A stretch of DNA of 64,000 bases from Phyllobacterium myrsinacearum. Lineage in GTDB: Bacteria; Pseudomonadota; Alphaproteobacteria; Rhizobiales; Rhizobiaceae. Position 1 is the stretch's first letter. Every line of letters begins with the position of its first letter. Location of the stretch: assembly GCF_002980555.1 (NCBI RefSeq), contig NZ_PVBT01000009.1, positions 166,102 to 230,101 of the forward strand. The letters run 5' to 3'. Below are positions 29,185 to 64,000 of this stretch, in pieces. The position numbers were made by a program, and so were the translations under genes. The notes under the pieces are model-generated. The model worked only from the letters and a program-made list of their open reading frames with translations. It was not told the DNA's origin and searched no databases.

Positions 29185-29202
29185 TTCAACGACCACCCCG
29201 TG

Positions 29203-35200: not shown

Positions 35201-38200
35201 CGTCACCATCAATATCGGTCTGGGTCGTGGAGACCAGACCGTTGGCACTCACCGTGGTGATGGTCCTGGCCGTATTGACCGATCCGGCCTGTTCTTGTGC
35301 TGTTGTCGTCAGAGATTCATCGGGATTGATCACCGTCGTCTCGGTCGTACTGGAATCGATTGTCCCGTTGCCGTCGATATCAACCGTCGTTGTCTTGACG
35401 AGGCCATTGGCGCTCACCGTCGTCACGGTTTGGCTCAAAAGCGAGCCATCACCATTGGTCTCCGTGATCGTCCGTGTGCGGCTGCCATTGGCATTGATGA
35501 CCGTCGCATCGACCGTCTTCCGGTCGATTGTGCCATCACCATTCAGATCCTCCGACAACGTTTTTGTCAGGCCGTCGGCACTGACCGTCGCAACGACCTT
35601 GCCATAGACCGTGCCGGATGCAGTTGTCAGCGTGGTGGTTGTGGTCGTGCTGCCATTGCCGTTCTGGACCTGGATGACTGTTCGATCGACAATGCCATCA
35701 CCATCCGCATCCGTCGTAACGGTCGTGGTCTTGCGGTCGGTGCTGACCAGAGTGACCTCACTGGCAAGCAGCGTGCCATCGCCGCTCCTTGTGGTGACCG
35801 TCTGCGTACGGCTGCCATCGGCGTTGAGAACAGTCACGTCCTTGACGGTCTCGTCGATCACGCCGTCGCTGTTGATCCACTTGTCCGTGGTCTTGGTCAG
35901 TCCATCAAGGGAGTAACCGGTCGCGGTTTTCCCCTTCAGCGTGCCATTGTTGCCCTGCAGGGAGAAGGCGATATGCCGCGTCTGATCGCCAAAGATGTAG
36001 ATGCCATCGACCGCGATCTGGTCATAGACGCCGTCGCCATTGAGATCGACCGAGATTTTCCGCCCGATCGCATCGGTCAAAGCTTCGGTTAGCGTCTTGC
36101 TGATCAGCGTGCCATTCGGATTGAAGGTCTCCACCGTTTGCGTCGTTGTGCCATTCGCATTGATGAGGGTGGTGGTTCGTACATCCACCACGCCGTCGCC
36201 GTTCTGGTCCTCCTCGACAGAGATGGTCTTACCGTCGCCACTGGTGCGGGTGACCAGGCGCGAGAGCAGTGTTCCATCCGCGCTCTTCTGGTCCACCGTC
36301 TGGACACGACTCTTGTCCGCGCCAACGACTGTGACATCCGTTGTGATGCGATCGGCGATGCCATCGCCAGTCAAATCGCTAGCGGTCGTCTTCGACAGGC
36401 CATCGGCGCTGAGGGTCACAACAGACTTGTCGCGCAGCGAACCATCGCTGTTGTAGCGCAGTGTCGTCGTCGTCACATTCCCGGCGCTGTCGACGGTGGT
36501 AACAATGCTGTCGCTTTCGTCGAATGTGCCAGTGCCGGTGTGATCATATTGGACCACCTTCGCCCGGTTGTCTGCACTCGTTACGGTTTGCGTCCTCGAA
36601 ATCAGCGATCCATCCGAATTGCGTGCATCGACCGTCCTGGTCCGGGTGCCGTCGCCGTTCAGCACCGTCGTTTCGCTGCTGACGCGCTCAAAGACCCCAT
36701 CACCATTCGAATCCGTCCGGGTGGTCTTGGTCAGACCATCTGCACTTGCCGTCACGCTGATCTGTTTGGTGAGTGTCCCATCGACACTGAACGCCTTCGT
36801 CGTCGTAACGGTTGATCCATCGGCATTGGTAACAAATGTCTCACTCTGATCGTTCTTGCCGTCACCGTCCTGATCGAGATTGGTCGTGATGGTCTTCCTG
36901 TCGGCACTCGTGATGATCGTGGTCTTGTCGGCCACCGACCCATCCTGGCGGACATTGGTGATGGTTCGAGTGCGGCTGCCATCTGCACCAATGACCATAT
37001 TGTCATATTGCGAGCGATCCGCGACACCATTGCCGTCATCATCATAATAGGTGAATTTGTTCAGCCCATCGGCGCTTGTCGTCACATTGTTGCTGAACGC
37101 CAGGCGGCCGTCCCTGTCATAGCCTTGAATGTTCTCGCTCGTCGAACCATCGGCATTGGTGACTTTCGTGCGCTTCAGCACATAACCATCAGATTCCGAC
37201 ACCAGGACCGCATCGCCAACAGTTCCTGTCGTTCCATCTGTTCGTGTATATTGCGACGTGCCCTTGATATAGGAACCGTCAGTAAAGTTTTGGCCACTTC
37301 CTTTTGGCGTCAGGTCAATCGAGGCAATGCCAAGCTCGCCCAGCGTCTTCATCACGCCGTCGACCATGACCTTGAATTCGCTCCAGCGCGCATCGCCGGC
37401 ATCGAGTTTGCCATTGTGGTTGGTATCGAAAACATTGCGAAGGGCTTCCAGATCGCTCGATGCCGTCCTGTCCCATTCGGTAAAGGCAAATTCATTCGAC
37501 TGGTTGATCTTGCCGTCATTGTTCGTGTCAATGACCAGAACGCCGGTACCCTTGCCCGCCCAGGCCGTGCGATGCAGATAGCCGTCGCCGTTCAGATCGA
37601 GGAACTGCGTGGAGGATGAAAGCGAGTCGATGTTTATGCCATTGCCGTCTAGATCAATAAGGACGGGTTTGCTGGCCGAAGAGCCATCTTTTAGATTATT
37701 CTCAATATCATTTTTTATCTTACTATAAGGAGAGTCATTGGTAAATTGGTGAATATTGCCCTCTCTATCGACGACGTAGTCATTGTTGTTTCCTCTGCCA
37801 AAATCCATGTGCAGAACCCCCCTTTCGGGAGTATTGTATCCAGCGTTAGCGGGATCCTTGGCGTAGTCACTGCCTATGCCACCGCCCGTTACGCTACCGT
37901 TTGAAATTGGCCCTCCCACTCCACTTGGCCGGCCGCCGCCATCATATCCATTCTTGCCGCCTCCTTGCGTCCCGCCAGTACCGGTTTTTCCTCCTGTTCC
38001 ACCTGGTGTTCCTCCACCTCTACCTGGCGTATCGCCGCCACTAGGTGTTCCACCACGATTGCCTCCTGGCATACCTCCTCCACCGACATTGCCTCCATTG
38101 TTTTCGCCGCCTCGTCCCGAAGCCGTGCCACCACCACCATCGGCACCACCGCTTTGCCTGCCGTCTCCGCCACCCTGTGGTTTGGATGGGTCGGATGGAT

Positions 38201-39167
38201 GTGCTGGTGAGACCGGTGCGACCGGTCGGGGTGACTCCCCAGGCGTAATTACACCCAGTCCTTGACCCGGCGTTGCTGCCACAGGCATCCCTGGTATGGG
38301 TGAAAGCGGTTGAACAGGTACGCCAGGTATGGGCGATTGTGGCTGAACAGGTGTTCCTGGAACAGGTGGTTGTGGCTGCGGGGTTGGAGTAGGCACCGGG
38401 ACACCAGTTCCCGAGTTGGCACCATAATATCCAGTTCGATATTGTTCATTGCTGACAGGATCCACAGTTGTATAAGGATTTGGATCAATACTGGATTGCG
38501 GGTTGAAGCCAAATTTATGCGATGATGCCCCGGGCACCGACATCCCGCTGAAGCTAAATGTAGACTCTGAGAAAGGCGTAGCTGTCGTTGAAAAGGTGTA
38601 GAAGTCACTTACTTGAGGCGTAAATGTTGCAGAACTTGTATACCCAATTGCAGCCGGTATTGTGATTGAGCCGTTCGGTGCGTTGGAAATTGTATTGTAC
38701 TGCGTGCCTTCAATACCTAATTGAACGCCTGTTTTGACACTTGCGTTCAGCTTATTCCCAAAAAAATTTACCGTTCCTTGTAATTGTCCAAACGCCTGTC
38801 CATCCGTGTTAAATCCAACACCTGCAAAAGCATCAATCTTTCCTTGCATTAAATTAGCTGGATTGACGCCTACCCTTGGCCCGATATCTATTCTCGGCCC
38901 GATATCTATCTTTTTCCCAAATCCAATTGCGAATTCTGATTTCTGATGATTATTCGTTATTGTTGTGGATCCCCTCAAGGAGACGATCCCTGGATTTAAA
39001 GTAACACTCATCTTCATGTAATCGGGATCATAAATCCTTCTTTCGATATTCATCGAAAAGTCTGTTAAACCCGTCTGTATTTTAAAATCGCTGAGTTTAA
39101 ACCCAGTGTTTATCGTTGGATCCAGGGGAGCCTGGCCATTAGGATTCATTTGAGACAAATCAGCCAT
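29295..39167 (-). CDS. Giant type I-secreted repeat protein with duplicated EF-hand-like modules
   Basis: A 3290-residue protein with no Sec signal. In order: a beta-rich N-terminal region (1-~250); Pro-rich linker (~253-320); Gly-rich linker (~325-440); EF-hand-like module A (~499-660) with VLIDLDGNGI, FLDLNGDGYL, DTNNDGKIN and DTNHNGKLDAGDARW; about 32 repeats of ~55 residues (693-~2480) with SADGL and DxNGDGxxD; 13 repeats of 38 residues (2543-~3062) with PWS, FN-AGQ and NDDGTR; a Gly-rich hinge; and module B (~3090-3290), clearly related to module A (VIIDLNGDDHI, FDTNHDTVLDDRDARWNEF). Asp-rich sites suggest Ca2+ binding on secretion. The exporter and adaptor genes follow directly. ATG 39167 has a GGAGAT ribosome site. 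Adhesin or biofilm-matrix role is inference; RTX nonapeptides are absent. Confidence 0.9.
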   Translation of the reverse strand: MADLSQMNPNGQAPLDPTINTGFKLSDFKIQTGLTDFSMNIERRIYDPDYMKMSVTLNPGIVSLRGSTTITNNHQKSEFAIGFGKKIDIGPRIDIGPRVGVNPANLMQGKIDAFAGVGFNTDGQAFGQLQGTVNFFGNKLNASVKTGVQLGIEGTQYNTISNAPNGSITIPAAIGYTSSATFTPQVSDFYTFSTTATPFSESTFSFSGMSVPGASSHKFGFNPQSSIDPNPYTTVDPVSNEQYRTGYYGANSGTGVPVPTPTPQPQPPVPGTPVQPQSPIPGVPVQPLSPIPGMPVAATPGQGLGVITPGESPRPVAPVSPAHPSDPSKPQGGGDGRQSGGADGGGGTASGRGGENNGGNVGGGGMPGGNRGGTPSGGDTPGRGGGTPGGTGGKTGTGGTQGGGKNGYDGGGRPSGVGGPISNGSVTGGGIGSDYAKDPANAGYNTPERGVLHMDFGRGNNNDYVVDREGNIHQFTNDSPYSKIKNDIENNLKDGSSASKPVLIDLDGNGINIDSLSSSTQFLDLNGDGYLHRTAWAGKGTGVLVIDTNNDGKINQSNEFAFTEWDRTASSDLEALRNVFDTNHNGKLDAGDARWSEFKVMVDGVMKTLGELGIASIDLTPKGSGQNFTDGSYIKGTSQYTRTDGTTGTVGDAVLVSESDGYVLKRTKVTNADGSTSENIQGYDRDGRLAFSNNVTTSADGLNKFTYYDDDGNGVADRSQYDNMVIGADGSRTRTITNVRQDGSVADKTTIITSADRKTITTNLDQDGDGKNDQSETFVTNADGSTVTTTKAFSVDGTLTKQISVTASADGLTKTTRTDSNGDGVFERVSSETTVLNGDGTRTRTVDARNSDGSLISRTQTVTSADNRAKVVQYDHTGTGTFDESDSIVTTVDSAGNVTTTTLRYNSDGSLRDKSVVTLSADGLSKTTASDLTGDGIADRITTDVTVVGADKSRVQTVDQKSADGTLLSRLVTRTSGDGKTISVEEDQNGDGVVDVRTTTLINANGTTTQTVETFNPNGTLISKTLTEALTDAIGRKISVDLNGDGVYDQIAVDGIYIFGDQTRHIAFSLQGNNGTLKGKTATGYSLDGLTKTTDKWINSDGVIDETVKDVTVLNADGSRTQTVTTRSGDGTLLASEVTLVSTDRKTTTVTTDADGDGIVDRTVIQVQNGNGSTTTTTTLTTASGTVYGKVVATVSADGLTKTLSEDLNGDGTIDRKTVDATVINANGSRTRTITETNGDGSLLSQTVTTVSANGLVKTTTVDIDGNGTIDSSTTETTVINPDESLTTTAQEQAGSVNTARTITTVSANGLVSTTQTDIDGDGTIDRVATTTKLLNANGSTSVTSVVKSGNGTLLSQSTTTTSADGKSIAIEQDLNGDGAIDARKSIVLGGDGTRTETTGTFTPDGLLIGRTIVETSSNGLSKKTSVDVNGDGTVDTITTDVTVLNVDGSKTNTTTITGTTGAIVSKVVTTFSADELSKTVEEDLTGDGVADKVTTTSIVINANGSRSQTVTTKAGSGTLLGKTVTLVSGDGKTTTVTTDDNGDGKTDETKVSVFNADGSTTTTVTEANADGSVYARTATTVSADGLTVTTLKDFDGDGVYDRTITDRTVINANGSRTQTITTTSSNGTLLDKTTVNISANGLLRTTEFDSNGDGIRDAATLDQTGLYSSGETVRGGGTAAYGIAQGVWTSQGQTVISANGLTKTMQSDFDGNGTMDRTVQTTKAINADGSTVETTLTTTWNNSTIAKSVTTTSANGRNITIEDDLNGDGVIDVRTTIVLNTDGTTTRTVSELKSDGSLNSKAVIDTWPNGLAAMTRVDLDGNGTFDRTTTNIITLNTDGSQTRTIQEFDAGNALTGKTVIVTNATGLTKTTSWTDGSGASLRSLSQTTTINADGSTVQVQTYFRANGSLESRTTTTLSADALTKTITSDINGDGVVDQRSVSVKNADGSLVTTLTDYAADGSTIVARRITTTSANGLSQTIDYDADGNGTTDTRTSSIIVLNANGSKTETISTFAAGGSGLVLKEKTVADTSADGLTKTTRWDIGGTGSFGRTSTDVTVLNADATRTRTVSIFSGSTLVNRFVTTTSANGYSVTTNWDTAGSGSFDQISTDVTTFNNDGTTTRTINSTKADGSLIAKTVTTQSVDGRIVTTQEDRAGQPSRILKNVSNVLADGSVVNTITTSSLAGQLFDKTAVTTSADKRRVTIERDADGDGKVDQTEQRIQAIDGSVTSITTGLRVDGTIANRTTSRTSADGLTTTIEFDTDGDGVTDRKRTTIGVYNADGSQRSTLTDTDDTGKLVAKTTISVSADGKTRTTVKDVNGNGTADRTETWVVDATGATVTTIVNNAEARDVSNLVSGSVNWVKAIAAKVETSTTADGLTTTTRSDYDGNGTYEVVMVSKTLIDGSVISTITETNADGSVKARGTQTTSADGLTTVLSKDANNDGIFDRIETAVSRRDGSITLTAVDKNADGSLKQTVIDSFTASGKLLRSLTTDAQGRKTAETLLAADGTTTVSTFDGPSGQALTVGTLNRKGILTASTLYDPLNANPWSKIEQTFNADGKKVFERQSKDDGTRVDIYFDAASGELSQVFFCDVNGKVTNVITYDFAKTQPWSRYEETFNPASQLTYKTTFNDDNTRVSQTYDVNNSQPWTSVRQDFNAAGVVFLQINYNDDGTQVLITFDANNTAPWSRYEETFNQAGQLTYKTTFNDDNTRISQAFDVNNSQPWTSVRQDFNAAGVLFSQTNYNDDGTRVFFTFDANNTAPWSRVEETYNPAGQLTYRNTFYDDNTRISQTYDVNNSQPWTSVRQDFNAAGSMVAQYTYNDDGTRVEFGFDPTNIATWSHYESTYNQSGQLTYQVTFNDDGTRINNWYDVANSQSWSKLIQTFNAASQMTAQFQINDDGSRFDVNLDPTNIAYWSRVEYYYNSANQLYYHVEFNDDGSKAVDTYDVANTQTWSHFRQTFNPAGQMVTQYQDFDDGTRYDITYDASNTQSWRTLEYWYDAQHRLTLDKPTFDDGSRTETFYDPSNAQPWQKIVDAYDAAGKIKETNQYNDNGTRSQYFYNSSGQVYQSVQYDAQGRIIPQGGGGGGGGPGTHGQPVIIDLNGDDHIDLRPFDPAQAAAHTGPMFDWDGDGVRDATAWAGPQDGFLVIDLGANGQAGGDGLIDQAKEIAFSLWATPEEIAQRGPISDLEGLRLAFDTNHDTVLDDRDARWNEFRIWQDANQNGITDPGELKTMSEAGIKLINLLPSPTGSTQFPDGSAITGTSSVQMMDGTTRLVGDATLTYRTASAA
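29981..31541 (-). repeat. Thirteen 38-residue (114-base) repeats in the giant protein
   Basis: Each unit runs from an aromatic-Asp pair through PW(S/T), an aromatic-Asn pair with AGQ, to NDDGTR. The middle units alternate in two types, giving a 76-residue (228-base) higher-order period. DNA at 30743, 30971 and 31199, exactly 228 bases apart, is nearly identical over more than 35 bases, showing recent duplication or gene conversion. Edge units are more diverged. Confidence 0.9.
31733..37091 (-). repeat. About 32 tandem repeats of ~55 residues in the giant protein
   Basis: Units of 53-60 residues share a T-x-SADGLTKTT segment, a calcium-loop-like DxNGDGxxDRxT segment, a VxNADGSRTxT segment and an end like DGTLLSKT. 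A few copies have lost the Asp loop (for example around residues 2000-2060) or carry insertions. Two linked Asp/Asn-Gly loops per unit suggest a regular Ca2+-stiffened beta structure. Copies are diverged, unlike the 38-residue array. Confidence 0.9.
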
Positions 39168-53434: not shown

Positions 53435-54703
53435 ATGTCGTTTCGTTTCATCCATACCGCTGACATTCATCTGGATTCGCCGCTGCGATCCTTGTCGCTG
53501 CGCGATCCGGATCTTGGCTTGCTGATCGGCGATGCCACGAGGCAGGCACTTGTTGCGATTGTGGACCTTTGCCTCGAAGAACAGGTGAATGCCCTGGTGA
53601 TTGCCGGTGATCTTTATGACGGCGATCAGACTTCGATGAAAACCGCCCGGTTTCTGGCAACGCAGATGCAGAGGCTGCACGAGGCTGGCATCAGCGTCTA
53701 TACGATCCGCGGCAATCATGATGCCCTGTCAAAGATTACGCAGGAACTGGTTCTGCCGCCTTCGGTCAAGATCTTTGGCGCGAGAGCCGAGGCGATCGAG
53801 GTGCAGCATGGAGGTCTTGCTATTGCCATGCATGGTCTGAGTTTTGGCAAACCGCAGGCGCCGGAAAGCCTGCTGCCGAAATTCAAACAGCCGGTGGCGG
53901 GTGCCGTCAATATCGGGATCATGCACACCAGCCTTGTCGGAGCTCCTGGCCACGATGCTTACGCTCCGTGCAATGTGGCAGACCTTCACGCATCCGGATT
54001 TGACTATTGGGCACTTGGCCATATCCATCTGCGCACGCAGCATCTGGGTACAAAGACAGTTGTTATGCCCGGTATGCCGCAGGGCCGAGATATTAATGAA
54101 GCCGGTGAGAAGTCTGTATCGCTCGTCACCGTTAATGATGACAGGTCAATCAGCGTTGAAGAGCGTCTGACCAGCATTGCCCAGTTTGAACGCGTGACGG
54201 TTGACGTGAAAAATGCGCGGGAATGGCGGGATGTGGTCACTGCCATTGAAATGGCATTGGACGGGCAACGCGACAAGACAAGATCGGACCATCTCGTCGG
54301 CAGGTTAAAACTGGTCGGCAACACACCGCTGGCATGGCAACTGCGCCGTGATGCTGACCTGTTGCAGGCTGAGGCTGAACAGCGCGCCCAGGGTATTGGC
54401 CGTACCTGGGTGGAGAAGATCGAACTCGCTGTGCACCCATTTGACGAGACAGCAACTGCCACGACCGCAGATCCCCTGGTCGAGCTCGGACAACTGATGC
54501 AAGCCGATGTCATGACCTCGCATGGGTTTCGCGAGGATGTGCGCCAGATGATCAAAGATCTGCTCGATGATCTGCCACCGGAAAGCCGGAAATTTGCCGG
54601 CAATTCCGAAACCGAATTTGAAACATTCATCGATGAGCTGATGATACAGAGCGGCGATGACATTATCGCGCGGCTTAAATCCCCCGGCCGGGAGACGCAG
54701 TGA
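53435..54703 (+). CDS. yhaO: DNA repair metallophosphoesterase (YhaO/SbcD-like)
   Basis: A 422-residue calcineurin-like phosphoesterase. Metal-binding motifs are in order: DIHLD (10-14), GDLYD (58-62), GNHD (93-96), an HTS segment near 170 and GHIH near 195. The C-terminal part is a helical capping/ATPase-binding region. AAGGA precedes the ATG. The stop overlaps the start of the ATPase gene (TGATG), and the two are expected to form an SbcCD/Mre11-Rad50-like complex acting on DNA ends. The pair is of the YhaO/YhaN type. Confidence 0.9.
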   Translation: MSFRFIHTADIHLDSPLRSLSLRDPDLGLLIGDATRQALVAIVDLCLEEQVNALVIAGDLYDGDQTSMKTARFLATQMQRLHEAGISVYTIRGNHDALSKITQELVLPPSVKIFGARAEAIEVQHGGLAIAMHGLSFGKPQAPESLLPKFKQPVAGAVNIGIMHTSLVGAPGHDAYAPCNVADLHASGFDYWALGHIHLRTQHLGTKTVVMPGMPQGRDINEAGEKSVSLVTVNDDRSISVEERLTSIAQFERVTVDVKNAREWRDVVTAIEMALDGQRDKTRSDHLVGRLKLVGNTPLAWQLRRDADLLQAEAEQRAQGIGRTWVEKIELAVHPFDETATATTADPLVELGQLMQADVMTSHGFREDVRQMIKDLLDDLPPESRKFAGNSETEFETFIDELMIQSGDDIIARLKSPGRETQ

Positions 54704-57700
54704 TGCGGCTGCGCAAGCTTGACCTTACCCGTTATGGCAAGTTCACGGACTACACCCTCGATTTTGGCGAGGCCGTCACTGGTTCACCTGATCTGCATAT
54801 TATCTATGGTTTGAACGAGGCTGGAAAATCCACTGCCTTTGCCGCCTATCTTGATTTCCTGTTCGGCATTGAAGAACGCAGCCGTTTCAATTTCCTGCAT
54901 CCCTATACGGCCATGCAGATCGGGGCCACGCTGCAGTTTGACGGACAGACCCATCAGCTGATCCGTAGCAAGGTCAGAACAGGCTCGTTGCAGGATGAGC
55001 GCGGCCAGCCGGTCAATGAGGCTTTGCTTGGGACACCGCTTGCCGGCATTGGCCGCGAAGCCTACCGCACCATGTTCTCGCTCGATGAACAATCATTGAA
55101 GGACGGTGGTAATGCTATCATCCAGAGCAAGGGTGATCTTGGAGAACTTCTGTTTTCTGCCAGTGCAGGCCTTGCTGATCTCAGCCAGACATTGGCGGCA
55201 ACGGCTGAAGAAGCCAATCTCATTCACAAGAAGCGCGGACGTAATACGCAAGTTGCCGAGCTGAAACAGAAGCTCGCCGAGCTTAAAACACAGCGGGATG
55301 AGATCGATACATTTGCGTCTGCCTATGCCAATCTTGTGACCACGAGCGATCAGGCACAATCAGCCTATGACGCGGCAATGGCGGAGCTTGGCAAAACCCG
55401 AACAAGCCTTGGTGATATCTCACGCATTATACGTGCCCTCCCCTTGGCCGGCGAACATTTACGCCTCAAAGGCCAGCTTGCTGATTTTGCCGACCTGCCG
55501 CGGCCGCCATCCGAATGGGCTGCGGAACTGCCACTACTGACGAAAGACCAGACGCGGATACAGACACAGATTGACGGAACGCAGAAAGAGCTCGCCCGGC
55601 TTCAATCCGAGATTGATGTGATCAAGATTGATGATCAGCTGCAGTCCGTCGCCATTCGCATTCTGGCACTTGAGGATGGCCGCGCACGCTATCGCACGGC
55701 TGAAGAGGATTTGCCCAAACGCCGGGCTTCTCTCAACGAACACGACAGCACTGTTTCAGGTCTTCTGAAATCACTCGTTCAAGATGGCAATCGGACACCG
55801 GAGGCACTTGTTCTTCCCGCTGCACTCATCGGAGAATTGCGCGGTTTGATCGAGACCCGCTCCGGGATTGATGCAACGCTGCAGACGGCTTCGCGTGAAC
55901 TCGCCAAAGCAAAACAATTGCTCGAACGCACCGAAGCAGAAGATGCGGCCAATACAAGACGCGGCAAGGTGCTCGGCGAAGAGGATGTGCGTTCCATCGA
56001 GACGGCACTTGGTTCCTTGCAGCGCAGTGACCATCCGGCGCGCCTGCGTGTGGCCGAGCGGGATCGCGGACAGCTTTCCCGCAACTACGACGCGCTTCTA
56101 ACCAGCCTGCATCCATGGATAGGCGACGGAGCAGCATTGCTTGCCCTTGATCTGCCTGAACCGCGCCGGATCGAAGCCTGGCGCAGTGAAGCCCTGCTCA
56201 TTGAAAAGCGTGTCCGGGAACACAAGGACAGCATTCGCAAGTTTGTGACGGAAGAGGCGAACGCGCGGGCGCATATTGAAGCTATCCAAGCGGCGGCCGG
56301 GCACATAGACGATGTCGAAGCACAGCGATCACGTGACGAACGAACGCGTGCCTGGGAGCAACATCTAGGCCAACTCGATCTGCAAACAGCCAAGGCATTC
56401 GAAGAGAAGATGCGGGTGTTTGATGATCTGAGTGAGACACGCCTTGCACGATCACGCGATCTGGCCGAACTGCGCCAGGCGGCACAGATTGCATCGGTGA
56501 GTGCCGCATCCATTCAGCGTGAAAAAGAATTGCTGGCCGAGGCTTCAGACGAGCTCTTACAGCTTCACACCCGCATTCGTGCCGCCGTCTCCAACGCTAT
56601 TGAATTGCCGGAGAATGCGACGATCGAGGATTGGCTGTCACGGCTTGAGCGCTGGAATGCCAACCGCAAGGAAACCCTCGCCGCATGGAATGCGCTTCGT
56701 GAGGTGGATGAGGACATCCGTCAGGCAAAATCCGAGCTTGATCATGAAGTTGCGGCCCTTGTGATTGCAATGCGCGTTACTGCCATTGGTGGCATTGAAA
56801 CCATGTCACCACCGGCATTGATGCAGACTGCGAGCGCACTAGTGTTAGACGCAGTCAGTGCCCGCAATGAAGCCGAGAACGCTGTTGCAAATCTCGCCAA
56901 ACAAAAGCGGGAAATTTCCGAGCGCCAAGAGGAATTCGCGCAGGCCGACGCACAGGCAAAACAATGGGACGGCCATTGGAACGAGGCCCTCTCCAAAACC
57001 TGGTTCGGAGCCACCACATCAGAAGTGCCGCAGGTGCGTGAAATCCTGAACATTCTTGCTGATCTTCCCGCCGCCTTGCGAGAGCGTGATCAACTGGCGC
57101 AGCGCATCGCCACCATGGAGAATGATCAGACTGTCTTCAGCAAAGAAGTGGCTGGCATTCTCGAAGCTCTCGGCGAGACCTTTGACACCGCACAGGTCCT
57201 GCAGCAGGCCGAAACTCTCATAAGGCGATATCAGCTGAGCCAGAGTGCACGAAACATCCACGCAATGAAACTGGATGAAGCCGAGCGTCTCGCAGACATC
57301 AGCCGCAAGCTCGAACAGGAACTTGCCGTGCATGAAGCACGCAAGAGTGAACTGACCGCCTTCTTCGGCGTCGAGACATTAACTGAGGTCAGCGCCAAGC
57401 TCGAACAGGCCGCCGACAAACTTCGGCTTGAACGCCGCATTGCCGAAATCGCCGATCAGGCAGCAGAAGAATTGCGCGTGGCGACTTTCCTTGAGGCTGA
57501 AGCCTTGCTTGCCGAAGTCAACGTCACCGAGATTGAACAACAGGCGGCAGAACTCTCCGGCCGTTCCAGTGATCTCGAAGAACAAACCCGCATACTCTTT
57601 GCCGACCTCACTCTGGCCCGGAAAAAGCTCGAGCAAGTGGGTGGAGACGATGCCGTTGCCAGGATCGAAGCGCAGCGGCGCACGATCTTCCTCGAAATAG

Positions 57701-58191
57701 AAGAGCTTGCGCAAAAATACCTGCGTCTTAAAACCGGTGCGCTTGCCGCCGAAAATGCCTTGCACCTCTATCGCGACAGACATCGCTCCTCGATGATGAA
57801 CCGGGCATCAGACGCCTTTCGTCTGATTACCCGCGGCGAATATTCCGGTCTCGCTGCCAAGCCGGAAAAGGACAAGGAAGTCCTAATCGGCGTTTCCAAA
57901 AGCGGCGCTTCGAAAATGTCAGATGCCATGTCAACAGGAACACAGTTTCAGCTCTATCTCGCCCTGCGTCTTGCCGGCTATCAGGAGTTCGCTGAGGTCC
58001 GCCCATCCGTGCCATTCATTGCCGATGACATCATGGAGACTTTTGACGAGCCGCGTTCCGAAGAGGTGTTTCGTCTGCTGAGTGAAATGGCCTCCATCGG
58101 CCAGGTGATTTACCTGACCCACCACAGGCATCTTTGCGAGATCGCACAAAAGGTTCTGCCAAGTGTGCGGATACATGAACTGAACGCTTAA
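54703..58191 (+). CDS. yhaN: SbcC/Rad50-like AAA ATPase (YhaN type)
   Basis: A 1162-residue SMC-like ATPase. LRKLDLTRYGKFTDYTLDFG starts the head; Walker A GLNEAGKST is at residues 36-44. Long coiled coils run through ~170-1000, and the C-terminal head holds TGTQFQLYLALRLAGYQEF (signature region) and VPFIADDIMETFDEPRSEE (Walker B and D-loop) near 1100. No zinc-hook CxxC was seen in the coil apex, as is usual for YhaN. It is translationally coupled to the phosphoesterase gene. The complex likely processes DNA ends or hairpins. Confidence 0.9.
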   Translation: MRLRKLDLTRYGKFTDYTLDFGEAVTGSPDLHIIYGLNEAGKSTAFAAYLDFLFGIEERSRFNFLHPYTAMQIGATLQFDGQTHQLIRSKVRTGSLQDERGQPVNEALLGTPLAGIGREAYRTMFSLDEQSLKDGGNAIIQSKGDLGELLFSASAGLADLSQTLAATAEEANLIHKKRGRNTQVAELKQKLAELKTQRDEIDTFASAYANLVTTSDQAQSAYDAAMAELGKTRTSLGDISRIIRALPLAGEHLRLKGQLADFADLPRPPSEWAAELPLLTKDQTRIQTQIDGTQKELARLQSEIDVIKIDDQLQSVAIRILALEDGRARYRTAEEDLPKRRASLNEHDSTVSGLLKSLVQDGNRTPEALVLPAALIGELRGLIETRSGIDATLQTASRELAKAKQLLERTEAEDAANTRRGKVLGEEDVRSIETALGSLQRSDHPARLRVAERDRGQLSRNYDALLTSLHPWIGDGAALLALDLPEPRRIEAWRSEALLIEKRVREHKDSIRKFVTEEANARAHIEAIQAAAGHIDDVEAQRSRDERTRAWEQHLGQLDLQTAKAFEEKMRVFDDLSETRLARSRDLAELRQAAQIASVSAASIQREKELLAEASDELLQLHTRIRAAVSNAIELPENATIEDWLSRLERWNANRKETLAAWNALREVDEDIRQAKSELDHEVAALVIAMRVTAIGGIETMSPPALMQTASALVLDAVSARNEAENAVANLAKQKREISERQEEFAQADAQAKQWDGHWNEALSKTWFGATTSEVPQVREILNILADLPAALRERDQLAQRIATMENDQTVFSKEVAGILEALGETFDTAQVLQQAETLIRRYQLSQSARNIHAMKLDEAERLADISRKLEQELAVHEARKSELTAFFGVETLTEVSAKLEQAADKLRLERRIAEIADQAAEELRVATFLEAEALLAEVNVTEIEQQAAELSGRSSDLEEQTRILFADLTLARKKLEQVGGDDAVARIEAQRRTIFLEIEELAQKYLRLKTGALAAENALHLYRDRHRSSMMNRASDAFRLITRGEYSGLAAKPEKDKEVLIGVSKSGASKMSDAMSTGTQFQLYLALRLAGYQEFAEVRPSVPFIADDIMETFDEPRSEEVFRLLSEMASIGQVIYLTHHRHLCEIAQKVLPSVRIHELNA

Positions 58192-58433: not shown

Positions 58434-61400
58434 ATGACCTTGCTACTTTCCGAGGTCATTGGGTCGCTTCTTTCAGGCGAACAGATTTCTTGGACAAAGT
58501 CAGGCTCCAATAAGGCCGGCTCAATTCACTTAGATGCTGCTGGGCCTCGCCGGCTTTTCAAGTATCTTCTTGCCTCCGACCCGGCCAAAGTGGCCGACGC
58601 CGACGAAAGCCTTTTTGCTGGGCTCGTTGAAAGTTGGGAAGCAGAAACAGATCCGGCCGACGATGTAAGCGCCCAAACAGATTTCACTACAGGATCGCCA
58701 TGGCGATTGTACCGGTTGGAAGCAAGCTCTTTTGGGGGACTATCGTCCCATGAGGGCAAAATCTTTGACCATCTATTCAATGGGGAGAACTGGTGCCTAG
58801 AAGGACAGAACGGCTCCGGAAAGACTTCTTTTGCCAGCGCCATCCTTTGGGCAATGACTGGCAAGCGAATACGCGAGCAAGATGGTCTCGTCAGGGACAA
58901 CGGTTTTCGCGAGGCGGTTTTTGATTCCAACGGTACAAATATAGGTACATGGCCACCGTTGGCTGCGTACCCGGCGGACCGAAGCAAGTTGTTCGACACT
59001 GCGACTGTGTGGGTACGCCTTACCTTCAGAGATGCCACGGGCGCGGAAGCGATCGCGTTTCGAAAGGTCGTTTCTTCTCCGTTGGATGAGCCCGTTGTCG
59101 AGGAGGTGATCGATCATCGTCTTATGCAGGCACCCCAGCTTATAGAAACGGGCTTACTCATGCCCGCTCGATTGGCGACCATCGGTTTTGGCCAACAAAG
59201 CCAGCCTTTGTTCGTGGCGGTACGGTCTCTTACGGGTCTTGATCAATTGGCAGACATCGCTGATGGTGCGGCCAACTTCGGTCACGCTGCAAGACGTTTT
59301 CTGAAGTTCGCAAAAGATAGTGGGATCGAAGTTCAGAAGGTAAAATTTGAGAATGCGGCCAAGAGTGCTACGGCAAAAGCTGTGGAAGGTGGCGTCACTA
59401 ATTTCAAGATCGGCAAGTTGGGCGACCAGGGCCTTTCGGCCACGCTTGCTGGTCTCGCCGACCAGTACGCCAAAAGTGCTGCGGAAAGCCTTGGCCGGAT
59501 AAAGGACGAGATTTCTGCTTCTGTTGACCTGTCGACGACCGATGGCCGAAAGACCGTCGCCGCAGCGATAAATACCGCCCGTTCGATTCTAGGACAGGGT
59601 GGAAAGGGCATCGATCTTTTCTCCGCGTGGGGGGCATTGACCACTGCCGCTAACGATGTGTCATTTAACACTCTGCCAACGAAGTTGGCAGAGGCGAAGA
59701 TTGAGCTATCAACCGCTTTGAAGTGGCACGCACGCCAACAAGAAGACCAAAAGCTTCGGTTGAAAGCAATTGGTGCGCAATTTTACAATGAGATCCCCCA
59801 TGATCACGCGGATGGCATCTGCCCACTTTGCGAAGCAGGCCTCTCCACCAACCAGCAGAAGCTTTTGGCAGCCGAACTTCGGGAGCTTAAAGTTCACTCG
59901 GCCGATGCGGAGCGCAAAATCTCTGATGTCTGTGCGACAATAGAAAAGCGACTTCTGGGACTGCTTACGCCGGACCTTGCAAAACACCGTGAAGCACTCT
60001 CGGAGATGCAGCCGAAAGATGCCTACCGAGATGCGGCAATCATCAGATTTGCAGGTGAGGCGCCCTTCGTCGACGTACTGATCGGCATTGCGGCCTCCGC
60101 AACAAAAAGGATTGAAGAACAGCATGGCGCCCTGAACAGCTTCAGCTTTGCTGCGCCGCCGATCATCCCCTTGGTTTCCCCTGCCGATGTTACTAGTTTG
60201 GAAGGACTGTTCCACTCACTCGGACGCCTGCATGCCCTTGTTGGTTGGTGGAAAGGTGAGCGTGTAGCTTTCAGAGAGGCTTGGAGTAGGCTGTGCGGCG
60301 TTAGGGACGAAGCAGGTTATCCTCCTGAAAGCTTGGAAGGCCTGCTCAAGGGGCTCGAGGATGCGAACAACCAGGCCAAGCCGTTTGATGAGCTTTCCGC
60401 GGAGCTCACCACGGCTTCAAAGGCCGCCGTGGCATGGCAGAAAATTCAGGATCATCAGCTGGTGCGTGAGAACATTGCGGACGCTTTGGCGCCGCTGAAG
60501 GAACTCAGAGCGCTAGTGATGTCCGAGACCTCATCTTCGATCGCCGTTCTGTCAGGCCGCATAAAGGCGATCCTCGAGCGCCTCTATTACCAAGAGAAGC
60601 TCTCTTATCAGGATGCCACCCTGACGAAGAAAACCGTTGAGGTAACTGGGAGCTTCTACGAGGGCATGCACATCCATGCGGGTCTTGTGGCCAACACGTC
60701 TTGGCTTCGAGCGATACTCTGGGCCTTCATTCTGGCTCTACGCGAACAGACCGTCGCGTCGCTCGGCGGCAATCCTTTCCCTCTAATTGTCCTAGATGAC
60801 CCCCAGGCTACGTTTGACCAACGAAACAAACGCCGCTGGGCGGCTGAGCTTGTTGGATTGACACCCACGACCGACGACACCTCGAATAGTTCCCAATTAA
60901 TAGTTACCACTCACGAGCGGCAGTTTTTCCAGTTCCTAGTCGATGTTGAGAAAATTGCGGGCCAGCAGGGCATCATTTCTGGGCTCAACAAAGTGTCTAC
61001 CGTCGCAACAGTCGTGAACGGTAGCTCGTTACAACGGACCCTGCAGGCCGCCAAAGACGGAAATGACGATGCGATTGGCTATCGATATGTGTCCGACGTT
61101 CGGGTCTATTGCGAAGATCTGCTGAAAATCATGCTTCGGAGCGAAGATCCAGATGTTGCGAATTTTACATTAGATAAACTTGGCAAAGAATTGAACCGCC
61201 TAATTGAGGGAAGCGTCCCTCCATACAACCGGAATCCGTTTAGGGAGCTGTCTAAAAGTCTCACTGGCGGTGGAGGTGGCAACGCGATCAAGTTGATCAA
61301 TGACTCCCACCATAAGAAGGACGGTACGATAGGCGTTGCTCAGGCCATTGAGGTATCGAAGTTTTGGGAGAAACCTCTTCAGGCCCAACTGTCCGCTTGC

Positions 61401-62303
61401 TTTGCTACCTACAATGCTTATGTGGCGTATACTGGGGACCCCCGCATTTTTCCCTGGCCAGAAAATGTGGTGTCGTTTCCGCCTAGCCAGAGTTCCAACA
61501 TCAAAACGGCGGTCCTACTACAAACCGGTGTCGCAGCAGCTGCTAAGACTGACGGTAGAGCTGGCGATGGGCAGATCTCGATCGAAGAGTGGCAAACTGT
61601 GCAGTCGGTTCGACTCGTTAACCATGAAGTGTATCAGGTAGCAGCCGGAACCTTGGATCCCGTTGCCGGCGTCGGGGATGTTGTTATTGTCAGCAACTAT
61701 GCTCAGGTGCACGAGAAAAATCTCGTTGTAGCAGCTTATGGTCAGCAGCTTCTGGCCCGGCGATACAACGAATCTGCCGTTCATCCTGACATTGCAGTCC
61801 TCACCGGCCATGCGGTCGATCCAAGTGCACTAGCACAGCCTGTAATCGCGCCCCGTGAACGGGTTACTCAACGCAAGATTGTCGGTACGCTTTTTCTGGC
61901 AAATCGGCTTTCCGTACCACTGAAGGATTCAGATAGCGAAGTTGTCGGCTTAACCGACACTACCATTGTTGAGGCTGTGCTTAATGGAGCCAAACTATTT
62001 CAGGTGAATGGGCGAAGCGCCGAGCCAATCGCCCTCGACGGGCAATTCCTCATTACGCACGAGCTACCCTTCGACTCCCAGACCCTTGCGCGGATGGAGG
62101 GTCGTTTAGTTATCGCGATCGACGACAGCGGCGCTCGGTACTTCAAGCGCTTGCGCCTGCACGGGAAAATTGTCGTTCTCGAGAGCCTCAACCCTGACGG
62201 CACAACCAGGTCGGAATTGCTTAGTCTCGATTCTGATGCAGGCCACCCAAAACTGTGCGGTCTCCTTGAAGTCGCTGGGATCTTGTTCGAGTTGCCGGGA
62301 TAA
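58434..62303 (+). CDS. SMC/Rad50-like ATPase fused to a C-terminal S24 (LexA/UmuD-like) protease domain
   Basis: A 1289-residue protein. A unique N-terminus (1-~90) leads to an SMC-type head, YRLEASSFGGLSSHEGKIF then Walker A GQNGSGKT (124-131). A helical arm follows, with one zinc-hook-like CPLC (Cys463, Cys466) at mid-arm. The C-head has Walker B LIVLDDPQATFD (Asp788-Asp789) and the H-loop TTHERQFF. Residues ~870-1120 are uncharacterised, including an INDSHHKKDG segment. The C-terminal ~145 residues match the S24 fold: Ser1195 in VNGRSAEPIALDGQFLI and Lys1238 in ARYFKRLRLHGKIVVLES. The 43-residue Ser-Lys spacing is the same as in lambda CI. A DNA-end-sensing ATPase that triggers proteolysis is the working hypothesis. 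No partner gene is coupled to it. Confidence 0.8.
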   Translation: MTLLLSEVIGSLLSGEQISWTKSGSNKAGSIHLDAAGPRRLFKYLLASDPAKVADADESLFAGLVESWEAETDPADDVSAQTDFTTGSPWRLYRLEASSFGGLSSHEGKIFDHLFNGENWCLEGQNGSGKTSFASAILWAMTGKRIREQDGLVRDNGFREAVFDSNGTNIGTWPPLAAYPADRSKLFDTATVWVRLTFRDATGAEAIAFRKVVSSPLDEPVVEEVIDHRLMQAPQLIETGLLMPARLATIGFGQQSQPLFVAVRSLTGLDQLADIADGAANFGHAARRFLKFAKDSGIEVQKVKFENAAKSATAKAVEGGVTNFKIGKLGDQGLSATLAGLADQYAKSAAESLGRIKDEISASVDLSTTDGRKTVAAAINTARSILGQGGKGIDLFSAWGALTTAANDVSFNTLPTKLAEAKIELSTALKWHARQQEDQKLRLKAIGAQFYNEIPHDHADGICPLCEAGLSTNQQKLLAAELRELKVHSADAERKISDVCATIEKRLLGLLTPDLAKHREALSEMQPKDAYRDAAIIRFAGEAPFVDVLIGIAASATKRIEEQHGALNSFSFAAPPIIPLVSPADVTSLEGLFHSLGRLHALVGWWKGERVAFREAWSRLCGVRDEAGYPPESLEGLLKGLEDANNQAKPFDELSAELTTASKAAVAWQKIQDHQLVRENIADALAPLKELRALVMSETSSSIAVLSGRIKAILERLYYQEKLSYQDATLTKKTVEVTGSFYEGMHIHAGLVANTSWLRAILWAFILALREQTVASLGGNPFPLIVLDDPQATFDQRNKRRWAAELVGLTPTTDDTSNSSQLIVTTHERQFFQFLVDVEKIAGQQGIISGLNKVSTVATVVNGSSLQRTLQAAKDGNDDAIGYRYVSDVRVYCEDLLKIMLRSEDPDVANFTLDKLGKELNRLIEGSVPPYNRNPFRELSKSLTGGGGGNAIKLINDSHHKKDGTIGVAQAIEVSKFWEKPLQAQLSACFATYNAYVAYTGDPRIFPWPENVVSFPPSQSSNIKTAVLLQTGVAAAAKTDGRAGDGQISIEEWQTVQSVRLVNHEVYQVAAGTLDPVAGVGDVVIVSNYAQVHEKNLVVAAYGQQLLARRYNESAVHPDIAVLTGHAVDPSALAQPVIAPRERVTQRKIVGTLFLANRLSVPLKDSDSEVVGLTDTTIVEAVLNGAKLFQVNGRSAEPIALDGQFLITHELPFDSQTLARMEGRLVIAIDDSGARYFKRLRLHGKIVVLESLNPDGTTRSELLSLDSDAGHPKLCGLLEVAGILFELPG

Positions 62304-62357
62304 GTTGAAGGAGCACAAAATCTTGTGATTGTTCAGTTTTTCGGCCATTTTGAAGCT

Positions 62358-62403
62358 GATTTCTGGCTAAGGATTTCAATTTTCTGATTAAGCATTTCAA
62401 TTC
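62358..62403. repeat. Two direct copies of a motif related to the adjacent large hairpin
   Basis: GATTTCTGGCTAAGGATTTC (62358-62377, running on to TCAATTT) and TTTCTGATTAAGCATTTCAA (62381-62400) resemble each other. Both also resemble the arm of the hairpin at 62566-62616, GATTTCTGGTTAAGCGTTTC. So three or four degenerate copies of one ~22-base sequence lie within 260 bases. Confidence 0.6.
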
Positions 62404-62565
62404 ACTAAATCATTGAAAGAATTGTGAAATTACTGATTTATGGCGCCGTGATCTGCTGACGTTTCGGGTATATTTGCAAAAATATGGGATCGGCAAATAT
62501 TATAGCATCGGTTCCGAAAAACCCATTATTCTGCAAAGGCTTACGCCATGCTGACGCGCCAAAAA

Positions 62566-62661
62566 TTGAAACGCTTAACCAGAAATCAGCACCAGATTTC
62601 TGGTTAAGCGTTTCAAATTGAAGTCGTTAGTCAGAAGCCACACACAGCGGCTGTGGCTTCT
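62566..62661. terminator. Two consecutive strong hairpins, probably a bidirectional terminator
   Basis: The first has 22-base perfect arms (62566-62587 and 62595-62616) with a seven-base loop. The second has ten-base perfect arms, AGAAGCCACA (62633-62642) and TGTGGCTTCT (62652-62661), with a nine-base loop. They lie between convergent genes, where a terminator is expected, but neither has a clear U-run. A small structured RNA or protein-binding site is an alternative. Confidence 0.55.
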
Positions 62662-63022: not shown

Positions 63023-63472
63023 CTAAGTCGATTTCGGTAGTTCCTTTAATGGATTCCACCATTTTACACCCATCGGCCGAAAATGCCTTTCGTTGGCAGT
63101 CAACACTGTCAGACCGTTAGCATCTGCCGTAGCGGCAATGGCTATGTCAGCGAAACCAGGCTCATGCGCGCGAGCACGATCAAGGATCGCACCGGCTGCG
63201 TAGGCTTCTTTGTTGCCAAAAGACAGAATCCTGTTTCCGTACAGGTTCTCAATCAAAATCACCCAGTTACGGAGCCGGCGCGCCTTGGCAACGGCTTCAA
63301 GCCGCTCGGCACGATGGATACCATGCCAGATTTCGGCAATGGTAACAGACGACAGATAGATGTCAGACCCGTGAAGTTCGAGCCAGCTCAGAAATGGCGG
63401 ACGCGTGTTTTGAGCCGCCGCCAGAGGCGAGGTTGCGGATACGACATTGGTATCAAGCAAGAACAAGCTCAA
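63023..63472 (-). CDS. vapC: PIN-domain toxin (VapC family ribonuclease)
   Basis: A 149-residue PIN-domain protein. The acidic metal-binding residues are present: Asp7 (LLDTNVVS), Glu47 (TIAEIWHGI) and Asp109 (FADIAIAATA), with a final TANERHF segment typical of VapC. VapC toxins cleave tRNA or rRNA. Its ATG overlaps the antitoxin stop (ATGA), so it is translated after the antitoxin. A position beside the repC end fits a plasmid or chromid maintenance role. Confidence 0.93.
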   Translation of the reverse strand: MSLFLLDTNVVSATSPLAAAQNTRPPFLSWLELHGSDIYLSSVTIAEIWHGIHRAERLEAVAKARRLRNWVILIENLYGNRILSFGNKEAYAAGAILDRARAHEPGFADIAIAATADANGLTVLTANERHFRPMGVKWWNPLKELPKST

Positions 63473-63717
63473 AACTCCGAACTATACGATCGAGATGGCT
63501 TCTGACTGCGTTCCGGAATGTCGTCGGCTTCGCCTGGGAATGCGGCAAGGAGCTCACCAAAGGTTGGAACCTTAGATAGCCGCTCGTATTCCTCGAAGGA
63601 AAGAACTACAGCTTCTTTGCGACCGTGACGCGTTACAACCGTCGGTTCCCCAGCGATCGCTTGATCGACGACCGCGGAAAACGTTGCTTTCACGTCTTTC
63701 AATTGTGCTTCTTTCAT
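63469..63717 (-). CDS. Phd/YefM-type antitoxin
   Basis: An 82-residue antitoxin. The Phd/YefM fold is seen in QLKDVKATFSAVVDQAIAGE followed by PTVVTRHGRKEAVVLSFEEY, and the tail contains the toxin-binding part. ATG 63717 follows a GGAG. A perfect palindrome (63731-63752) just upstream is the expected operator. It neutralises the VapC protein and represses the operon. Confidence 0.93.
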   Translation of the reverse strand: MKEAQLKDVKATFSAVVDQAIAGEPTVVTRHGRKEAVVLSFEEYERLSKVPTFGELLAAFPGEADDIPERSQKPSRSYSSEF

Positions 63718-63730
63718 TGGTGTAACTCCG

Positions 63731-63752
63731 ATATGACTACAAATAGTCATAT
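63731..63752. promoter_or_regulatory. Toxin-antitoxin operator palindrome
   Basis: ATATGACTA-CAAA-TAGTCATAT is a perfect 9-base dyad 14 bases upstream of the antitoxin ATG. Phd-type antitoxins bind such palindromes to repress their own operon. Confidence 0.75.
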
Positions 63753-63846
63753 TATGGTTCATATCGTTTTCTGCAAGAGATTTCCGCGTCGTTGCGGCGG
63801 TTTTGAGTAGCTATGTCCAGTCGGGCCTCAATCGTCCGCATCGGTT

Positions 63847-64000
63847 TCATTCCATCTGTCCCTTGACGAGCCTGACATGGGAGCCGTTGGCCCTGAGCTG
63901 GGCCAGCAGCATCGGCCAGACGGAGAATTCGCCCTTGGCCGCCTTGTCGGTGAGGGAGCGCAGATACCCGCCGGCCGAATTGATCTGCCCGGCCCTTTGC
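63847..64000 (-). CDS. repC: Replication initiator RepC, C-terminal end (partial)
   Basis: The minus strand from the window edge reads RAGQINSAGGYLRSLTDKAA then EFSVWPMLLAQLRANG, ending KGQME and TGA at 63849-63847. INSAGGYLRxLTxKA with a following E/QFS-x-x-PM segment is the conserved C-terminus of RepC initiators of repABC replicons in Rhizobiales. Only about 50 residues are in the window. repA and repB would lie beyond 64000, in the same direction. The replication origin of these systems lies within repC, also outside. Confidence 0.8.
   Translation of the reverse strand, partial: QRAGQINSAGGYLRSLTDKAAKGEFSVWPMLLAQLRANGSHVRLVKGQME

What the first reader, a model, noticed from the sequence alone, without database searches (positions are those of the whole stretch)
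58434..62303. Single-protein ATPase-protease: Rad50-like head with hook fused to a LexA/CI-type S24 domain
Seen: Walker A at 124-131, one CxxC hook (Cys463/466), Walker B with double Asp at 788-789, and an S24-like C-terminus with Ser1195 and Lys1238, spaced 43 residues as in lambda CI. Known: S24 domains in LexA, UmuD and CI self-cleave on RecA-DNA; SMC-like ATPases in Lamassu, RloC or Septu-type systems sense DNA ends or phage. Inference: DNA-end sensing could trigger cleavage that frees a toxic part or changes transcription. I know of no described system with this exact fusion. The ~250 residues between the ATPase and S24 parts are uncharacterised and could be the effector.
Basis: partly seen in the sequence, partly recalled or inferred. 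Interest (0 to 1): 0.88.

Follow-up and report, generated by a model that had tools for sequence, protein, structure and literature searches.

The report
RloC-like ATPase with tandem protease domains
A bacterial gene, swapped at its locus between related strains, appears to join a DNA-break-sensing type of ATPase, a region with the catalytic pattern of the tRNA-cutting enzyme RloC, and a pair of LexA-type protease domains in one protein; this suggests a self-controlled, cell-stopping nuclease, which no experiment has tested.

Summary
Ser1195 and Lys1238 are kept in all 32 aligned rows (window included) that are readable there, down to about 20% identity.

Two things were missed. First, the "uncharacterised" stretch carries an invariant R890-x3-E894...H960 (38 of 38 rows), the pattern of the catalytic triad of the anticodon nuclease RloC, also a zinc-hook ATPase. 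Walker B plus this region against 21 RloC-like proteins gives 95% and lines up all three residues; the region alone is not significant. Second, there are two S24 domains: the first lacks Lys but keeps an Ala-Ala pair aligned to LexA's cleavage site; the second has the Ser/Lys dyad.

The gene is rare, patchy, often disrupted, near Mre11/SbcD-type genes in 9 of 37 loci, and was replaced in its slot between two related replicons.

Best reading: an RloC-like, probably translation-stopping nuclease controlled by a built-in S24 pair. Ten paper searches found no such architecture.

The parts
58434..62303 (+). the whole gene, 1289 aa
58434..58703 (+). N-terminal ~90 residues, with family-wide G15 and R39 (33/33 each), no known domain
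   Evidence: no Pfam match there
58803..58826 (+). Walker A GQNGSGKT (124-131)
   Evidence: G124 32/33; N126, G127, G129, K130 33/33
59820..59831 (+). zinc-hook-like CPLC (463-466)
   Evidence: C463 and C466 34/35 each; the other row, L005, is a C-terminal piece
60693..60710 (+). degenerate ABC signature N754-x-S756-x-x-R759
   Evidence: N 37/38, S 37/38, R 38/38; aligned to LSEGEK of RloC-like proteins
60795..60800 (+). Walker B D788-D789 of DDPQ
   Evidence: 38/38
61086..61388 (+). RloC/PrrC-like nuclease region with R890 (61101-61103), E894 (61113-61115), H960 (61311-61313)
   Evidence: triad 38/38; co-aligned with the RloC-like triad
61539..61544 (+). A1036-A1037, aligned to LexA A83-A84 before the LexA scissile bond
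   Evidence: A1036 36/37, A1037 37/37; LexA alignment
61503..61907 (+). S24 domain 1, without catalytic Lys (Arg in 31, Gly in 4 of 35 rows), Ser position mostly Thr
   Evidence: LexA chains, best E 0.0013 (0.23 when searched alone); 12 of 22 members match Pfam S24, the window's own does not
61881..62300 (+). S24 domain 2 with S1195 (62016-62018) and K1238 (62145-62147)
   Evidence: Pfam S24 (8 of 22 members); Ser and Lys 32/33 each
53435..54703 (+). neighbour: Mre11/SbcD/YhaO-like phosphoesterase, 422 aa
   Evidence: Metallophos 1.6e-14; SbcD model 1.2e-16, below that model's cut-off
54700..58191 (+). neighbour: YhaN-like SMC-type ATPase, 1163 aa (the name YhaN is mine)
   Evidence: AAA_27 1e-62
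62313..62642 (.). downstream DNA 94.5% identical to the same slot in Phyllobacterium sp. 628 plasmid p_2

Best explanation
A single-gene, RloC-like nuclease switch. A Rad50/RloC-type ATPase head and hook sense DNA ends or damaged foreign DNA (inferred; published for RloC). A following region with the R890-E894-H960 triad cuts RNA, most likely tRNA anticodon loops, and stops translation (inferred from the motif and profile alignment). A C-terminal pair of S24 domains controls it: the first domain, which lacks the catalytic Lys, presents the conserved Ala-Ala pair at 1036-1037, lying between nuclease and S24 module, and the second domain (S1195/K1238) docks on or cuts it, separating or repositioning the module. 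Shown at sequence level: architecture, strict conservation, tandem S24, patchy spread and replacement in place. Not shown: any activity, direction of control, or trigger. Most likely role (inferred): phage or plasmid defence.
For: In the 18-row C-terminal alignment the only 12 invariant columns are R890, E894, H960, A1036, A1037, S1195, A1196, P1198, K1238, R1239, G1256, G1282. RloC: Arg-X3-Glu-X36-52-His, Ser often before His, CXXC hook, each triad residue needed for activity (PMC2610378, passages); DNA double-strand-break inducers activate RloC (PMC3874168, abstract and outline). Of 21 RloC-like proteins aligned, 21 have CxxC and 20 the triad; three have HH and spacing X53-54, towards this family's HH and X63-71. 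hhalign, Walker B + triad region against them: 95.2% (92.9% with another column rule), R890, E894, N956, H960 on R, E, N, H. Same query against LmuB, SbcC, YhaN profiles (15, 2, 4 sequences): 0.2, 0.2, 3.6%. In 100 column permutations the triad was never co-aligned. PADLOC's PrrC model matches 761-837, E 4.6e-5. A profile of 850-1289 finds LexA with A83-A84 on A1036-A1037; domains 1 and 2 are mutually related (93.8%). In 378 genomes a match over both S24 domains occurs in 2 of the 25 with any match, both members of this family. Defence genes beside some relatives: DRT (L008), Shedu (L010), DUF3320/Hhe-like (L036), PDC-S05 (L014).
Against: The triad region alone is not significantly like RloC (0.4%, 0.5%; against three intermediates 2.5% or, their C-termini only, 10.9%); most of the score is the ATPase (head alone 58.2 of 62.9) and 2 of 100 permutations reach the real score. 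With the N-terminal half included (90-1010) LmuB (96.4%) and SbcC (92.9%) also match, so the head as such is not specific; the best PADLOC match is LmuB (52.8 bits). Pfam AAA_13 does not match. Glu-His spacing exceeds RloC's X36-52. The residue after Ala-Ala is Phe/Arg/Lys/His/Leu/Ser/Glu/Gln, never Gly (36 rows with a letter), unlike LexA-family sites (recalled), so cleavage there is doubtful. In some relatives the frame ends in or before the S24 part while ATPase and triad stay open (L012, L013, L030), so it may not be an obligatory brake, unless those genes are silent. No fold prediction was possible.
Confidence: 0.5

Rival explanations
1. The S24 pair is itself the effector: DNA sensing by the ATPase activates domain 2, which cuts another host or phage protein in trans; 885-985 is only a helical linker.
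For: Ser/Lys dyad strictly kept; no conserved Gly-containing self-cleavage site; domain 2 also lines up with signal peptidase I with Ser and Lys in register, though only at E 0.14.
Against: R890, E894 and H960 are in 38/38 rows and match the RloC pattern.
Confidence: 0.15
2. The S24 pair does not cleave: domain 1's Ala-Ala loop sits in domain 2 as a permanent plug, and the pair is a dimerisation or RecA-filament docking module that ties the nuclease to the SOS state.
For: The residue after Ala-Ala is never Gly although Ala-Ala is nearly invariant (36/37 and 37/37); domain 1 lacks Lys.
Against: A pure scaffold need not keep the Lys: the position is Arg or Gly in domain 1 but Lys in 32 of 33 domain 2 rows. 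No SOS box enrichment upstream.
Confidence: 0.2
3. A DNA repair or end-processing accessory that works with Mre11-Rad50-type pairs rather than a defence nuclease.
For: SbcD/YhaO-type genes in 9 of 37 loci, of two flavours and in differing order; the linkage needs 7 changes on a tree of 30 rows.
Against: 28 of 37 loci lack such a gene in the DNA held; shuffled labels need 6.4 changes on average, so the tree shows only that the linkage is scattered; patchy, replaced and disrupted genes fit defence better than housekeeping; a shared insertion hotspot could explain the linkage.
Confidence: 0.1

Closest known systems
RloC (ABC-HEPN anticodon nuclease, Pfam AAA_13)
   Same: Rad50-like ATPase halves split by a CxxC hook, DDP Walker B, R-x3-E...N-x3-H pattern in that order
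   Different: the 21 RloC-like frames aligned here are 725-800 aa and end 28-64 residues after the His column; this protein has a further 329 residues with two S24 domains, an extra N-terminal region, longer E-H spacing, and no AAA_13 Pfam match
LexA / UmuD / CI (S24 peptidases)
   Same: S24 profile; Ser-x2-Pro and Lys-Arg motifs; Ala-Ala aligned to LexA A83-A84
   Different: two S24 domains in one chain, one without Lys; fused to an ATPase; no Gly after the Ala-Ala pair; no helix-turn-helix match in Pfam
Lamassu LmuB
   Same: SMC-like ATPase with partial profile match, 52.8 bits; heads related (96.4% over 90-1010)
   Different: no LmuA or LmuC match among three neighbours scanned; Walker B + triad region does not match LmuB (0.2%)
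Rad50/SbcC
   Same: ATPase motifs and hook
   Different: the Walker B + triad region does not match the two SbcC sequences used (0.2%); no S24 extension in Rad50/SbcC (recalled)

Membership tests
RloC | ABC ATPase interrupted by an insert with a CxxC hook | tested here: met
   Walker A, CxxC, Walker B in order and conserved; the coiled coil itself was not computed
RloC | Arg-X3-Glu-X36-52-His triad | tested here: inconclusive
   R, E, H 38/38 and co-aligned but spacing X63-71
RloC | significant sequence kinship (AAA_13) | tested here: inconclusive
   hhalign 95.2% with Walker B included; Pfam AAA_13 no match; triad region alone not significant
RloC | anticodon nuclease activity | not testable with these tools
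   needs expression and a tRNA assay
S24 peptidase | S24 sequence profile | tested here: met
   25.7 bits over cut-off 23.3 for residues 850-1289; whole protein 21.5 and domain 2 alone 19.3, both under it
S24 peptidase | Ser-Lys dyad | tested here: met
   domain 2, 32/33; domain 1 lacks Lys
S24 peptidase | LexA-type Ala-Gly or Cys-Gly self-cleavage site (recalled) | tested here: not met
   Ala-Ala kept, next residue never Gly
S24 peptidase | S24 fold | not testable with these tools
Lamassu | LmuB with LmuA/LmuC partners (recalled) | tested here: not met
   partial LmuB match; no LmuA/LmuC among 3 neighbours scanned

The most novel reading that the evidence does not exclude
An intramolecular pseudo-heterodimer of S24 domains: the first domain, without Lys, carries the substrate loop, the second, with the Ser/Lys dyad, cuts it when the Rad50/RloC-like head binds DNA ends, making activation (or shut-off) of an anticodon nuclease an irreversible proteolytic event inside one polypeptide. 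This would be a direct fusion of the LexA-type damage protease to a translation-stopping nuclease, of which I found no description.
Probability: 0.25. Interest if true: 0.9.

Novelty: new variant of a known kind. Interest (0 to 1): 0.72.

Why it matters
RloC is reported to respond to DNA breaks and cut tRNA, but how such toxic nucleases are held back or ended is open. A built-in LexA-type protease pair would give a defined, mutable switch, link two classic DNA-damage modules, and offer S1195, K1238, A1037, R890, E894 and H960 as direct tests. It would also show a protease domain kept without its Lys, perhaps to present a substrate.

Tried and rejected
Lamassu as home family: not accepted as membership. 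SOS control by a LexA box: GTTC-N7-GTTC, GAAC-N7-GAAC and CTGT-N8-ACAG with at most one mismatch, near the starts of 32 genes (13,120 bases): 5, 4 and 1 sites against 4.6, 4.4 and 4.6 in base-shuffled DNA, no exact match. Phage or viral carriage: no match in the phage collection (50,697 records) and none confirmed in the viral contig scan, at those sensitivities. An ATPase and its neighbour beside the M. huakuii copy as another SbcCD pair: not supported by Pfam. The S24 pair as a free-standing module elsewhere: of 25 matching genomes (own included), 23 match over one stretch only; one of these (G484, E 4.8e-16, frame of 83 aa) may be a remnant of this family. Foreign base composition: GC 0.539 for the gene against 0.551 for the window, uninformative (whose last part failed). 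Papers: ten searches listed no description of this fusion; bioRxiv and most subscription journals are not held, and I opened only three papers.
Full report
What is there. Window 58434-62303 (+) is one open frame of 1289 aa. Pfam gives SMC_N (8.7e-9, under its cut-off), AAA_23 (1.1e-6, over it) and Peptidase_S24 (2e-4, 21.5 bits against a cut-off of 23.3); residues 850-1289 alone score 25.7 for S24.

Relatives. tblastn in the plasmid collection found 18 records, 8 covering at least 80% of the query. Whole-genome samples, the own genome counted in each: 2 of 60 relatives, 4 of 385 genomes of the class, 3 of 398 of the phylum. No phage record matched and no viral contig was confirmed. Record names are mostly Alphaproteobacteria, with a few gamma-, beta- and deltaproteobacterial and other records.

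Conservation. I aligned 38 rows, window included, out of the frames found; 8 of them are partial or look disrupted, and L005 is the C-terminal piece of an interrupted gene. R890, E894, H960, D788, D789: 38/38. N956 34/38. C463 and C466: 34/35. A1036 36/37, A1037 37/37. S1195 and K1238: 32/33 each, the exception and the 5 gaps being rows whose C-terminus is broken or out of register. In a separate alignment of 18 C-termini the only invariant columns are the triad, the Ala-Ala pair, S-A-x-P, K-R and two glycines.

The nuclease-like region. RloC's motif is Arg-X3-Glu-X36-52-His, often with Ser before His; replacing any of the three by Ala abolished activity (PMC2610378, passages). The HEPN survey places the PrrC and RloC nucleases in the HEPN superfamily, joined to SbcC/Rad50-like ATPases that regulate them (PMC3710099, passages), and break inducers activate RloC (PMC3874168, abstract and outline). 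All 21 have CxxC; 20 of 21 have the triad. hhalign of residues 690-1010 (family profile) against them: 95.2%, 92.9% with another match-column rule, where R890, E894, N956 and H960 fall on R, E, N and H. With nine AAA_13 sequences it was 76.2%, and LmuB, SbcC and YhaN profiles gave 0.2, 0.2 and 3.6% (these had 15, 2 and 4 sequences). Against this reading: over residues 90-1010 LmuB (96.4%) and SbcC (92.9%) match too, against 98.3% for the 21 RloC-like proteins, so the head alone does not single out RloC; most of the score comes from the ATPase (head alone 58.2 of 62.9); 2 of 100 column permutations reached the real score, though none co-aligned the triad; the region by itself gives 0.4-0.5%, or 2.5-10.9% against three AAA_13 members that also have HH. 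So RloC kinship is supported for the Walker B half with the region attached, and suggestive for the nuclease region.

The S24 pair. A profile of residues 850-1289 finds 11 LexA sequences among 12 PDB hits (E 0.0013 to 0.059), over domain 1, with LexA A83-A84 on A1036-A1037, so that the LexA scissile bond would lie before window K1038. Domain 1 alone reaches LexA only at E 0.23, but 12 of 22 members match Pfam S24 there, the window's own not among them. Domain 2: 8 of 22 members match S24, the window's with 19.3 bits, under the cut-off; in the PDB it finds no S24 chain, only a doubtful lytic transglycosylase (E 0.035) and signal peptidase I (E 0.14), the latter with Ser and Lys aligned. The two domains are related to each other (93.8%). 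Domain 1 has Arg (31) or Gly (4) for Lys; domain 2 has Lys in 32 of 33. The residue after Ala-Ala is never Gly.

Neighbourhood. Directly upstream lie a YhaO/SbcD-like phosphoesterase and a YhaN-like ATPase. I compared the surroundings of 37 loci (window, L004-L025, L027-L040; L026 and the loci of the genome search were left out): an SbcD/YhaO-type gene lies in 9 (window, L005, L024, L034, L036; L007, L012, L016, L017). Several of the 37 have short flanks, so this is a lower bound, and some Bradyrhizobium loci are close kin. YhaN itself is patchy: 13 of 60 relatives. YhaO occurs in 5 of 12 genomes behind my loci, with 8 matches, one a fragment. On a tree of 30 rows (7 of the 9 linked loci) the linkage needs 7 changes, shuffled labels 6.4 on average: it is scattered, arisen or lost many times, and a shared hotspot remains possible.

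Replacement. Against Phyllobacterium sp. 628 plasmid p_2 (same genus by matching coordinates of G013), flanks are 90.5% and 94.5% identical and YhaN 91%, but the gene itself only 44-51%, and the tree puts the 628 piece with the copy from Sphingomonas (support 99). I infer that the gene was replaced in its slot; in 628 it is interrupted. Same-genus genomes G006, G007 and G017 have the YhaN-like gene but no match to this one. Other relatives lie near DRT, Shedu, DUF3320/Hhe-like or VPA1262-type genes or beside recombinase genes.

Verdict. Observation right; interpretation partly right. The most economical reading is an RloC-like nuclease with an added S24 control pair. Activity, trigger and direction of control are inference.

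Noticed in passing
window 29295-39167 (-), with 26998-29196 (-) and 25412-27031 (-): A 3290-aa protein of repeated ADG/NADGS and DxDGDG-like motifs beside what reads as a type I secretion ABC transporter and HlyD-like adaptor; read by eye only.
   Followed up: no
window 62355-62383 / 62562-62590 and 62563-62619: Inverted repeats, one a 25-bp hairpin with 96% complementary arms, in DNA shared with a repABC plasmid of the same genus.
   Followed up: partly
window 63023-63762 (-) and 63872-63993: Phd antitoxin-like and PIN/VapC-like toxin genes next to 122 bp matching the repC gene of plasmid p_2 at 85%, so the contig is probably a repABC replicon.
   Followed up: partly
L005, L012, L013, L017, L021, L030, L031, L032, L035: Many relatives of the gene look disrupted by insertions, stops or frame changes; described only.
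   Followed up: partly
L112, L113, L117: AAA_13 proteins with HH instead of SH and longer triad spacing, intermediate between RloC-like proteins and this family.
   Followed up: partly
   Followed up: no
L028:5214-9374: In Shinella the gene lies beside frames that read by eye as imuA/imuB-like and DinB-like; Pfam gave no match for the imuA-like one.
   Followed up: partly
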